A program made the position numbers and the translations under genes. Below are positions 53,526 through 58,006 of a stretch of 64,000 bases of DNA, piece after piece. Source of the DNA: an uncultured Ignatzschineria sp. (GTDB lineage Bacteria; Pseudomonadota; Gammaproteobacteria; Cardiobacteriales; Wohlfahrtiimonadaceae); the NCBI GenBank assembly GCA_945639195.1, contig CALZEE010000001.1, positions 62,001 through 126,000 of the forward strand, read 5' to 3'. The stretch's first letter is position 1; each line of letters opens with the position of its first letter. The notes beneath the pieces were generated by a model, which had not been told where the DNA came from, did no database searches, and saw only the letters and a program-made list of their open reading frames with translations.

Positions 53526-55463
53526 ATGAGCCTGTTATCCCACGAATTAGAATTATTAAGTCCTGCCCGAAATGTTGAGATCGCCCGTGAAGCTATTATT
53601 CATGGTGCGGATGCTGTCTATTTGGGAGGCCCTGAATTTGGGGCGCGTCACGCCGCAGAGAATGATGTCTCCGAAATCGCAAAACTCACGGGATTTGCGC
53701 ATCGTTTTAATTCGAAAGTCTTTATTGCGCTCAATACGATTTTGCACGATAACGAACTCGAATCTGCACGTAAGCTCGTTTATGAGCTCTATGATGCCGG
53801 CGTCGATGCTTTAATTGTGCAAGATATGGGGTTATTAGAACTCGATCTGCCCCCGATTGAGCTTCATGCCTCAACCCAAACCGATATTCGCACACTGGAT
53901 AAAGCCAAATTTATGGCGGATGTCGGTTTCTCTCAACTTGTTTTAGCGAGAGAGCTAAGCTTAAAAGAGATCCGCGCAATTCATGAAGCGCGCCCGAATA
54001 CGGCACTGGAGTTCTTTGTGCATGGTGCGCTGTGCGTGGCATTCTCTGGGCAGTGTTATATTTCCCATGCAGACAATGGACGCTCAGCAAACCGTGGGGA
54101 TTGTTCGCAGGCATGTCGCTTGCCCTATACGTTAAAAGATAGTGAAGGGCGCGTGATTGCATTTGATAAACACTTATTGTCGATGAAAGATAATAACCAA
54201 TCTGCCAATATTGATCAGTTGATTGAAGCCGGCATTCGCTCCTTTAAGATTGAAGGACGTTATAAGGATATGGCGTATGTGAAAAACATCACTGCGCATT
54301 ATCGTCAGCTTATTGATGGTTATTTGGAGAGAAACCCGGCATTTAGCCGTTTATCTCACGGTAAAGTAATGCATCACTTTATCCCAAACCCTGATAAAAC
54401 CTTCCACCGCGGAAGCACAGATTACTTCGTGAATGCGCGTAAAGGCGATATTGGTGCTTTCGATTCACCGAAATTTATTGGGCTACCGATTGGGGAATTG
54501 CTCGATATTAAGAAGAACTTTATCGAAGTGAAAACCACAGAACCTCTCGCCAATGGCGATGGTTTAAACGTCCAGATTAAACGAGAAGTCGTGGGTTTTG
54601 CGGTCAATCGTGCGGATAAAATTGGGGATAATCATTACCTTGTTTATCCAAATGAAATGCCGGAAGCTTTCACAACAGAGCGAGCGAATATTCAGAAAAA
54701 ACACCCGCTCAACCGTAACCATGATCAGGTATGGAGCCAGCTCTTAACGAAAGAATCTGCTGAGCGTCATTTAGAACTATCGATGATGTTTAGCCAAAAA
54801 GAGGGCGCGTATCTGCTCGAGCTCTTCACAAAAGAGGGGCATTACGCTTCGAGTGAATTAACGGGAGCATTTGAGCTTGCGAATGATGCCGAGAAAGGTT
54901 TAGCGAATCTTGAGAAGAATCTCTCTAAATTTGGCGGAACAGGATTTATCTTAACGGATACGCAAATCAGCTTGCCGGAGATTCCATTTATTCCTGCAGG
55001 AATGGTCAACCAGCTTCGCCGTGATGCATTGGAGAAGTTAGAAACCGCGATTCAGGACAACTATGTACGCGGAACGCGCCGAGCAAAAGTTGATCCGCCG
55101 GCAATCTTCCCGTTTGAGAAACTCACATTCTTGGATAACGTCTATAACCAAAAAGCGCGTGAATTCTATAAAAAGCATGGCGTTACAATGATCGAGCCTG
55201 CCTATGAAGCGCACGAAGAGCTCGGCGAAGTGCCGGTGATGATCACAAAGCACTGCTTACGCTTCTCGTACAATCTCTGCCCGAAACAGACGATTGGCGT
55301 CACAGGCGTACAAGGACAAGTAAAACCAACGCCTTTAACGCTGAGCCATCAAGGCGAAGAATACACCCTCAAATTCAACTGCCGACCCTGCGAAATGCAC
55401 GTGATGGGAAAAATCAAACCCCACGTTGTGAAGCAGGCGCAGTTAGGTTCTGAGTTGAAGTAA
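53526..55463 (+). CDS. rlhA: 23S rRNA 5-hydroxycytidine synthase RlhA (peptidase U32 family)
   Basis: Forms 5-hydroxycytidine at position 2501 of 23S rRNA in E. coli (YdcP). The length, 645 residues, matches RlhA (about 653) and not the shorter tRNA enzyme TrhP. Strongly conserved blocks are ELLSPARNVEIAREAI, HGADAVYLGGPEFGARH, IELHASTQ, FFVHGALCVAFSGQCYIS, NRGDCSQACRLPY (with the Fe-S type cysteines), FKIEGRYKDMAYVKNIT and the C-terminal MITKHCLRFSYNLCPKQ plus FNCRPCEMHV. It is a single gene; a hairpin (55482-55504) overlaps its downstream flank. Confidence 0.95.
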   Translation: MSLLSHELELLSPARNVEIAREAIIHGADAVYLGGPEFGARHAAENDVSEIAKLTGFAHRFNSKVFIALNTILHDNELESARKLVYELYDAGVDALIVQDMGLLELDLPPIELHASTQTDIRTLDKAKFMADVGFSQLVLARELSLKEIRAIHEARPNTALEFFVHGALCVAFSGQCYISHADNGRSANRGDCSQACRLPYTLKDSEGRVIAFDKHLLSMKDNNQSANIDQLIEAGIRSFKIEGRYKDMAYVKNITAHYRQLIDGYLERNPAFSRLSHGKVMHHFIPNPDKTFHRGSTDYFVNARKGDIGAFDSPKFIGLPIGELLDIKKNFIEVKTTEPLANGDGLNVQIKREVVGFAVNRADKIGDNHYLVYPNEMPEAFTTERANIQKKHPLNRNHDQVWSQLLTKESAERHLELSMMFSQKEGAYLLELFTKEGHYASSELTGAFELANDAEKGLANLEKNLSKFGGTGFILTDTQISLPEIPFIPAGMVNQLRRDALEKLETAIQDNYVRGTRRAKVDPPAIFPFEKLTFLDNVYNQKAREFYKKHGVTMIEPAYEAHEELGEVPVMITKHCLRFSYNLCPKQTIGVTGVQGQVKPTPLTLSHQGEEYTLKFNCRPCEMHVMGKIKPHVVKQAQLGSELK

Positions 55464-55486
55464 AGGATATCGGTATTGTAAGGATG

Positions 55487-57424
55487 TTAGTTTTTAACAT
55501 CCTGGATACCTAGGCTTTTGATGTATTGATAGATATCATCATATTCTTGTGGCTGGCGAGTATGGTCTGTTGGATCACCCTCTGGAATATAGATTACCAT
55601 CCCCTGGCGAGCCCTCGTTAATAATACGCGATAAGCATTTTTTTTAAATGCTTGTTTATCCGTCTGATTCACATTTTCCCAGCGAGAGCCTCTGAAGTTT
55701 TTATAATCCCAATCGAGTTTACCAACTCTAAAATCAAGATCCCACGCGACACATACCCAATCTAGTTCTAAGCCTTGAATGTCAAATTCAGTTGCAACTT
55801 CCTCTAAGTAATAAGAAGAGCGAACGTCATCTTTAGTATTTAAAAACCAAGGGATTTCTTGAAATTCTCGTCTGACATAAATCCCCTCTTTTTTTAGGCG
55901 ATGAGCACCGGAAGATGCAACAATCCCTGTTCGCTCTAATCCTCTTGCTTTTGATAATAGCCAGTTTCGAGCGATTGTTAATGAGCGGGTGATTTTTATA
56001 GGGTAATTTTGTTTTAAATTTTCATATAGTGCTTGGGACTTTTCTTGTTCGAAATTAAGTAGGGTACTTACCCAATTTGATAACTGCTCACTTCTAAAGG
56101 CCCTGATAGAAACTGATAAATGAAGGTCAGCGTTAACAGTGATGTTTTTTACTATATTTTTATTTTCTTCTAATAACGTATGATTAGGCGTATAGATTTC
56201 CCATGAAGAAAAATCATTAAGGGCATTAAACCATTCGCTGATTCCCGCTTCACCGCTATTTATTTCTTGACCTTCTCCAATTAAGCAAACGATCACAGCC
56301 CAGCTTTCATGGCGATCCATAACACTTAATAGAAAATGAGGCTCAGATTGGTTAAAGTTTTTTTGATCCCTCTTTTTTTGCATGAATTGGCTAGTAGCCT
56401 CTTGATTCCATGCTCGCTGAGCCTCATCGAAGATAATAACTTTTTCTGCTGGAGGAGCGCTGCTTTTTAAAGCATCATCTCTGAAATGGTGAATGTTTTG
56501 TATAAAGCTCGCAACTTTTCGACGAGCATTATCGAGCGTAGTACCTTCACGAGTAGCTTCATCTCTGGCTAATGCTTCTCTTAATACATTTACTAAGGGG
56601 CCATTACCTGATAGAAATGTCGCTAGCTCTTCTTCTTTATAGTCTTGTCGATTATTTGCGATATTGAGACCTGCTAGTGTTTTTCCTGCTCCCGGAACAC
56701 CTGTAATAAAACAGATTGCTTTTCTATTGTTTTTCTTACATTGATCAATCACTTTGTTTACGGCATTAGCTGTAGATGACAGATTATGGATACTTGCATC
56801 TGATCTGGAAATACTCTCAACACCATGACCTCGATAGAGGGTTTGTGCAGCTTCTATTATAGTTGGAGTGGGATAATAACGTGATTTCCCCCACTCTTTC
56901 CCACATAATTTAGGGGCGCTAGGATGATGGCTAGAAATTTTGTTAATTAGCTTGCTGAGCTCAGTGGGAATACAATCAATTGGTTGATAAACATTATCGT
57001 GATTAATACTGGGTAGCACAGATGATTGTAACTTTGTTTTTGTCGCAATTAAAATGGGAACAATAATGCGGTCATGACTAGCTTCATGAAAGTTTTTTAG
57101 GTCTAAGGCATAGTCTTCGACCTGATCTAAGTCTTGTTTCGTTGACTCGGATTTTCCTACTTTAAACTCTAAAAGGAAAATAATCCCCTTATGAATAATG
57201 ACATTATCAATGCGTTTACCAATTCGGGGAATGATATATTCAAAAAATATTTCAGAGTCTGGTGCTGAAGGAAGTGCTGATTTTAGAATATCTATTTGTT
57301 CCTTCCAGGCGCCTTTTTGAGTATACGTATCATCAAAAAGAGAGGATTCAGAGATTTTTCCCATGATTTCCTCAAGATTACTTTCTTTAAAAGACGTTAA
57401 AGAAGATTGATAAAATGCGCGCAT
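55487..57424 (-). CDS. PD-(D/E)XK nuclease fused to DUF2075 (Schlafen-3-like) helicase
   Basis: A 645-residue protein joining two nucleic-acid domains. The N-terminus shows a restriction-type nuclease: D73 in KRIDNVI, E86-x-K88 in LLEFKVG and a RecB-type QxxxY (Q101, Y105). The rest is a DUF2075 helicase with Walker A GVPGAGKT (242-249), Walker B VIIFDEAQ (329-336) and the motif VI-like YRVLLTRARQGMVIYIP near 605. The gene is AT-richer than its neighbours and lacks the TGCCGG word common elsewhere. Such nuclease-helicase fusions are often antiviral; I cannot assign a named system. It has no partner gene beyond the small gene at 57494. Confidence 0.85.
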   Translation of the reverse strand: MRAFYQSSLTSFKESNLEEIMGKISESSLFDDTYTQKGAWKEQIDILKSALPSAPDSEIFFEYIIPRIGKRIDNVIIHKGIIFLLEFKVGKSESTKQDLDQVEDYALDLKNFHEASHDRIIVPILIATKTKLQSSVLPSINHDNVYQPIDCIPTELSKLINKISSHHPSAPKLCGKEWGKSRYYPTPTIIEAAQTLYRGHGVESISRSDASIHNLSSTANAVNKVIDQCKKNNRKAICFITGVPGAGKTLAGLNIANNRQDYKEEELATFLSGNGPLVNVLREALARDEATREGTTLDNARRKVASFIQNIHHFRDDALKSSAPPAEKVIIFDEAQRAWNQEATSQFMQKKRDQKNFNQSEPHFLLSVMDRHESWAVIVCLIGEGQEINSGEAGISEWFNALNDFSSWEIYTPNHTLLEENKNIVKNITVNADLHLSVSIRAFRSEQLSNWVSTLLNFEQEKSQALYENLKQNYPIKITRSLTIARNWLLSKARGLERTGIVASSGAHRLKKEGIYVRREFQEIPWFLNTKDDVRSSYYLEEVATEFDIQGLELDWVCVAWDLDFRVGKLDWDYKNFRGSRWENVNQTDKQAFKKNAYRVLLTRARQGMVIYIPEGDPTDHTRQPQEYDDIYQYIKSLGIQDVKN

Positions 57425-57493
57425 GTTACATCCTATATATTTTAAATATTAATTATATGAGGGTAATAATATAGGGTTATAAAAATATATCCA

Positions 57494-58006
57494 TTAAGCA
57501 ATCACCAATACGCGTTCCATCTCTTCTAGGTTACGAAGATACTCTGCTTGATGTTCCCATTCTGGTTGTAATCCTGCCCAGATTTTTAAGCGATCAATGC
57601 CGACTTGGACATAATATTTATAATCCTCTTCAATGCGACCCTCATCTACCAGCTGACCAAATGCTGTGGCGATGACGGAGGTATCGAGCGTGTAGATATA
57701 TTGGCGGTCATCAAATTCAGGATCTGCCATCAGCGCTTTAATAAGATCTTCATCAATGAGGTCATCTTCATTATATTCATCGTAATCTTCATATCCGCCA
57801 ACGCTCTCAATTACCCAAGCGATGCAGTAACCCACTTCAATATGGGGATTTAGCGCGCGCCATTCTCTAAAACATGCGAGTGCGGTATGCCCGGCATCTG
57901 AGCCAAAAGCGGCGAGGTCATCGGCAGGATTCCAGAAGAAATCTGCGGTAAGCAGCTCAAGCGCTCTTGGGTGGGCTTTTGTTTTGTCGATGCCTAAAAA
58001 TTCCAT
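57494..58006 (-). CDS. Conserved hypothetical acidic protein
   Basis: A 170-residue cytoplasmic protein, very acidic in its centre (GYEDYDEYNEDDLIDEDL, near 70-88) and helical. The opening FLGIDKTKAHPRALELL with DFFWNPADDLAAFGSDAGHTAL looks like a conserved family of small cytoplasmic proteins I cannot name. No catalytic motif was found. An AGGAA site 5 bases before the ATG supports the start. It lies 69 bases ahead of the nuclease-helicase gene on the same strand and could be co-transcribed, but its composition is like the ordinary neighbours. Confidence 0.75.
   Translation of the reverse strand: MEFLGIDKTKAHPRALELLTADFFWNPADDLAAFGSDAGHTALACFREWRALNPHIEVGYCIAWVIESVGGYEDYDEYNEDDLIDEDLIKALMADPEFDDRQYIYTLDTSVIATAFGQLVDEGRIEEDYKYYVQVGIDRLKIWAGLQPEWEHQAEYLRNLEEMERVLVIA

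What the first reader, a model, noticed from the sequence alone, without database searches (positions are those of the whole stretch)
55487..57424. Solitary nuclease-helicase fusion as a candidate defence gene
A PD-(D/E)XK nuclease (D73, E86, K88, Q101, Y105) is fused to a DUF2075 helicase with intact Walker motifs. The gene is AT-richer than its flanks, lacks the TGCCGG word, and is inserted between ordinary genes. One-gene nuclease-helicase fusions in other bacteria are antiviral.
Basis: partly seen in the sequence, partly recalled or inferred. Interest (0 to 1): 0.6.

Follow-up and report, generated by a model that had tools for sequence, protein, structure and literature searches.

The report
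Solitary nuclease-helicase defence gene in hotspot
One bacterial gene fuses a DNA-cutting domain to a motor domain, belongs to an already catalogued but untested family of candidate anti-virus genes, and sits in a chromosomal slot where related species keep other anti-virus genes instead.

Summary
The 645-aa ORF at 55487-57424 (-) carries an N-terminal PD-(D/E)XK nuclease (core residues invariant in 78 homologues) fused to an SF1 helicase of Pfam PF09848 (SLFN-g3_helicase). It is AT-rich (lowest GC3 of 51 window ORFs) and lacks TGCCGG, though that gap is only the fourth longest.

The protein matches PADLOC's candidate family PDC-S41 over its full length (916.8 bits). I found no experimental test of PDC-S41.

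Among 8 congeners none has an intact copy, and one (G007) has an IS630-truncated C-terminal remnant at the same site. The slot behind the U32-peptidase gene holds different restriction systems in three congeners (McrBC; Eco47II-like R-M; HaeII-like R-M plus the remnant) and is empty in four.

Full-length homologues at 42-52% identity occur in about 17 phyla, one archaeon included, on plasmids and viral contigs, and inside or next to Mza-like, R-M and McrBC loci. In 7 of 81 loci a NUDIX gene (PDC-S07) abuts it.

Most likely it is a one-protein, ATP-driven nuclease that destroys phage or plasmid nucleic acid. Substrate and trigger are not shown.

The parts
55487..57424 (-). PDC-S41 nuclease-helicase gene, 645 aa
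   Evidence: PADLOC PDC-S41 residues 1-643 of 645, 916.8 bits; Pfam PF09848 282.9 bits
56930..57424 (-). N-terminal PD-(D/E)XK nuclease domain (about residues 1-165; E62, R67, D73, E86, K88, Q101, Y105, D108)
   Evidence: invariant in 78 homologues; AlphaFold2 core and Foldseek matches to PD-(D/E)XK nucleases; weak NERD match in 14 of 74 members
55583..56722 (-). SF1 helicase domain, residues 235-614 (Walker A 242-249, Walker B 333-334, R604)
   Evidence: PF09848; conservation; best PDB matches SLFN11/SLFN14, Upf1, RecD
55464..57494 (.). unique insert of about 2.03 kb relative to congeners; contains only this gene
   Evidence: blastn against G004 and G008: similarity ends 55462, resumes 57495 (G008) or 57591 (G004)
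53526..55463 (+). left flank: U32-family peptidase gene, conserved in the genus and fixing the hotspot's left edge
   Evidence: PF01136 244 bits; found in 7 of 8 congeners at 85-93% identity
57494..58006 (-). right flank: 170-aa gene without a family match; present in G004 and G008 without the nuclease-helicase, so not part of the system

Best explanation
The gene is a horizontally mobile, single-gene anti-phage or anti-plasmid system of the PADLOC candidate family PDC-S41, lodged in a small defence hotspot behind a U32-peptidase gene. Shown: its domain make-up, intact active-site residues, sporadic distribution, turnover of restriction systems in the same slot, and association with defence loci elsewhere. 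Inferred: the helicase loads on an exposed end or a replication/recombination intermediate of invading nucleic acid, ATP hydrolysis moves the protein along it, and the fused PD-(D/E)XK domain cuts or nicks it. With no methylase or guide partner, discrimination probably rests on structure (ends, ssDNA, phage proteins), as described for Nhi, Gabija and Shedu. Confidence given is for the immune role; the DNA-cutting details are less certain.
For: PADLOC PDC-S41 full length, 916.8 bits. Invariant nuclease and ATPase residues in 78 homologues, so both activities are under selection. Confident models and PDB fold matches. Sporadic: 10 of 369 genomes of the class; none intact in 8 congeners, one remnant beside an IS630-type transposase at the same site. 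The same slot holds McrBC in G008, Eco47II-like R-M in G002, HaeII-like R-M plus the remnant in G007, and no defence gene in G003-G006. Homologues in about 17 phyla with phyla intermixed on the tree. Context elsewhere: Mza-like operon and BglII-like R-M on viral contigs, type I R-M and McrBC on plasmid pCXA, restriction locus with Dcm-like and Vsr-like genes on a gut 'Bacteriophage sp.' scaffold. PADLOC hits at E <= 1e-30: 46 models among 140 immediate neighbours against 14 models among 91 genes at least 7 kb away. Single-gene precedents are reviewed in PMC12904381.
Against: No experiment here or in the papers found tests PDC-S41. Most immediate neighbours of homologues are not defence genes. 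PADLOC's PDC families are themselves defined by association, so the match is not independent proof of function. Substrate (DNA or RNA) and trigger are not determined; the helicase resembles RNA-acting Upf1 and Schlafens as well as RecD.
Confidence: 0.75

Rival explanations
1. It is a defence protein that acts on RNA: a Schlafen-like helicase senses phage or stress RNA and the nuclease cleaves RNA, shutting down the infected cell (abortive infection).
For: Best PDB fold matches are human SLFN11/SLFN14, followed by Upf1; Pfam names the domain Schlafen group 3 DNA/RNA helicase.
Against: The N-terminal domain resembles PD-(D/E)XK nucleases, mostly DNA enzymes, and no Schlafen core domain was detected. 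The SLFN match has TM-scores of only about 0.3.
Confidence: 0.15
2. It is an accessory DNA-repair helicase-nuclease (RecB/AddAB-like role) without immune function.
For: The helicase also matches RecD folds; nuclease-helicase fusions are typical of end-processing repair enzymes.
Against: Absent from most congeners and from 359 of 369 genomes of the class, gained and lost at a slot shared with restriction systems, carried on plasmids and viral contigs.
Confidence: 0.07
3. It chiefly protects mobile elements against rival plasmids or phages, and its chromosomal copy is a passenger.
For: Found on plasmids and viral contigs; weak Foldseek matches of its nuclease domain to the plasmid-defence protein DdmD.
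Against: The window insert holds only this gene, with no mobility gene, and most of the homologues found lie on ordinary genome contigs.
Confidence: 0.1

Closest known systems
PADLOC PDC-S41 (phage defence candidate, single gene)
   Same: Full-length match, residues 1-643 of 645, 916.8 bits.
   Different: Nothing that I could detect; it is a typical member. The family has no experimental validation that I could find.
Nhi (single-gene nuclease-helicase immunity)
   Same: One protein with a nuclease and a helicase, described as a phage-SSB-linked DNA nicker and unwinder (PMC12904381).
   Different: Only a weak local match around the Walker A motif, 20.1 bits, so a different helicase family.
Gabija (GajAB)
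   Same: Nuclease plus helicase defence linked to DNA ends (PMC12904381).
   Different: Two genes, an ATPase-nuclease and a UvrD-like helicase (PADLOC names).
Schlafen proteins (SLFN11, SLFN14)
   Same: Closest solved helicase fold; shared Pfam helicase naming.
   Different: The Schlafen RNase core is absent; the N-terminus is a PD-(D/E)XK nuclease.
NERD-domain nucleases
   Same: Weak Pfam NERD match in 14 of 74 members, best E 0.021.
   Different: Not significant; the window protein itself has no NERD hit at E <= 1.

Membership tests
PADLOC PDC-S41 | match to the PDC-S41 profile over its whole length | tested here: met
   916.8 bits, E 1.7e-276, profile 1-653 of 657
PADLOC PDC-S41 | demonstrated antiviral activity | not testable with these tools
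   no experiment possible; no paper naming PDC-S41 found in the library
SF1 helicase of Pfam PF09848 | profile match above the curated cut-off with intact Walker A and B | tested here: met
   282.9 bits against a cut-off of 24; motifs conserved
PD-(D/E)XK nuclease superfamily | D...ExK triad on an alpha-beta-beta-beta-alpha-beta core | tested here: met
   D73, E86, K88 invariant; model core and fold matches (weak E-values)
Schlafen | N-terminal Schlafen RNase core domain | tested here: not met
   no such domain among the Pfam hits shown; N-terminus matches PD-(D/E)XK folds
Nhi | full-length match to the Nhi profile | tested here: not met
   20.1 bits, best stretch 228-259 only
mobile defence gene | sporadic presence and turnover at a shared slot | tested here: met

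The most novel reading that the evidence does not exclude
PDC-S41 and the NUDIX family PDC-S07, catalogued as separate single-gene candidates, are two parts of one system in some lineages: a nuclease-helicase whose activity is tuned by a nucleotide-hydrolysing partner, with the window gene a partner-free version. The seven NUDIX ORFs grouped by BLAST in the 10-kb flanks of 81 loci all abut the gene (within 15 bp, upstream or downstream), and a Niallia homologue overlaps an HNH-NUDIX fusion gene.
Probability: 0.25. Interest if true: 0.6.

Novelty: new member of a known kind. Interest (0 to 1): 0.4.

Why it matters
If it restricts phages it would validate a widespread but, as far as I could find, untested candidate family found in bacteria and an archaeon, and add a one-protein system without an evident self/non-self mark. 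The locus also defines a small, testable defence hotspot in this genus, where four different contents and empty versions can be compared.

Tried and rejected
Literature searches for PDC-S41, DUF2075 with phage defence, and Schlafen anti-phage helicase-nucleases found no paper on this family. NCBIfam gave no meaningful hit. Sequence searches of the PDB gave only weak matches, the best limited to the Walker A region. The missing TGCCGG word was examined and judged weak. The 170-aa neighbour was considered as a partner and rejected, because congeners have it without the gene. A simple promoter scan near the start gave no more sites than shuffles. The BFVD fold search gave only generic helicases among the matches listed.

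Full report
The observation. The ORF at 55487-57424 (-) is a complete 645-aa gene. Residues 235-614 are a superfamily 1 helicase of Pfam PF09848 (282.9 bits). Residues 1-165 are a PD-(D/E)XK nuclease. In an alignment of 78 homologues E62, R67, D73, E86, K88, Q101, Y105, D108, most Walker A residues (G242, P244, G245, G247, K248, T249), D333, E334 and R604 are invariant. AlphaFold2 models are confident (mean pLDDT 91.3 whole, 94.5 for the N-terminal domain). Foldseek places the helicase nearest to SLFN11/SLFN14, Upf1 and RecD. It places the N-terminal domain among PD-(D/E)XK enzymes (a repair endonuclease of P. abyssi, Can2, Cdn1, BspD6I, McrC, Bax1, DdmD), though with weak E-values. Composition supports acquisition from elsewhere: GC 37.7% and the lowest GC3 of 51 ORFs. 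The absence of TGCCGG is real, but that gap is only the fourth longest in the window.

What it is. PADLOC-DB holds a profile, PDC-S41, which the protein matches along its whole length at 916.8 bits. PDC stands for phage defence candidate (PMC11514479); a 2026 archaeal survey describes PDCs as putative, mostly single-gene candidates found by a guilt-by-embedding approach and largely unvalidated (PMC12988326). No paper naming PDC-S41 was found. The gene is therefore a member of an already catalogued candidate family.

The locus. The genome has one copy. Of 8 congeners none has an intact copy. G007 keeps about 135 C-terminal residues (65-69% identical) directly beside an IS630-type transposase and at the same place. 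The slot starts at the stop codon of a U32-peptidase gene, found at 85-93% identity in 7 of the 8 congeners; in G001, a fragmented assembly, no orthologue was found. G008 holds a McrBC pair there, G002 an Eco47II-like methylase and endonuclease, and G007 a HaeII-like methylase and endonuclease plus the remnant. G003, G004, G005 and G006 show no defence gene there. At nucleotide level the window's insert runs from about 55463 to 57494 and contains only this gene. The 170-aa right-hand neighbour is flank, as G004 and G008 have it without the nuclease-helicase. Because outside homologues are at most 52% identical, the G007 remnant points to an older shared presence, or transfer within the genus, followed by replacement. 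That is turnover typical of a defence hotspot (inference).

Distribution. A scan of the genome collection found 180 relatives and kept 80, nearly all full-length, at 42-52% identity, from about 17 phyla including one thaumarchaeon. On a maximum-likelihood tree phyla are intermixed: 30 label changes against a minimum of 16. Labels are still more clustered than chance (shuffled mean 43.5), so transfer looks frequent but not unlimited, and binned metagenomes may add contamination. Within the class 10 of 369 genomes match. Copies also occur on plasmids, on a gut 'Bacteriophage sp.' scaffold and on several IMG/VR contigs.

Company it keeps. Exiguobacterium plasmid pCXA has it between type I R-M genes and McrBC. 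The gut scaffold has it on the same contig as Dcm-like, helicase, endonuclease and Vsr-like genes (the Dcm and Vsr names are read from the translations, not from a profile). One viral contig has it as the last gene of an Mza-like operon (Z1, DUF4420, AIPR, cytosine methylase), another beside a BglII-like R-M pair. Immediate neighbours of homologues match 46 PADLOC models at E <= 1e-30 (140 proteins) and far neighbours 14 models (91 proteins). Several models can hit one protein and the table does not resolve members, so this is a modest enrichment and no exact rate can be given. The one recurrent partner is a NUDIX hydrolase that abuts the gene in 7 of 81 loci, upstream or downstream, in Bacteroidota, Bacillota, Kiritimatiellota, Pseudomonadota and the gut scaffold; the five tested match PADLOC PDC-S07. 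A Niallia homologue overlaps an HNH-NUDIX fusion. The window gene has no such partner.

Mechanism. Shown: architecture, conserved active sites, mobility and context. Inferred: an ATP-driven motor that engages ends or intermediates of invading nucleic acid and a fused nuclease that cuts it. With no methylase, guide or sensor partner, recognition is probably structural, as discussed for Nhi, Gabija and Shedu in PMC12904381. The resemblance of the helicase to Schlafens and Upf1 keeps an RNA-acting model open. A housekeeping role is unlikely given the sporadic distribution.

Verdict. The gene is a new member of a known candidate kind, so interest is moderate. The added findings are the U32-peptidase defence hotspot and the PDC-S41/PDC-S07 pairing.

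Noticed in passing
window 1-64000: TGCCGG occurs 125 times (about 15 expected from base composition), extended as AWTGCCGGCAWT; AATGCCGG and ATTGCCGG are the commonest 8-mers. It is also enriched in congeners, like an uptake-signal word.
   Followed up: partly
L128:4122-8078, L122:10704-12559, L127:10074-13509: The slot behind the U32-peptidase gene holds McrBC, an Eco47II-like R-M, and a HaeII-like R-M with IS630 and a PDC-S41 remnant in three congeners.
   Followed up: yes
L005:2660-3061, L106:12088-12483, L121:12061-12450, L045:5030-5434, L112:7712-8224, L113:9604-9990, L057:11959-12390: A NUDIX hydrolase gene (PDC-S07 in the five tested) abuts PDC-S41 homologues in distant phyla.
   Followed up: partly
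L054, L080, L105: In three Burkholderiales loci a PDC-S41 homologue lies close to a gyrB-like gene (23-795 bp), possibly another insertion hotspot.
   Followed up: no
L133 (G046:C40:105592-107573): A PDC-S41 homologue split into two open frames (453 and 236 aa), apparently a decaying copy.
   Followed up: no
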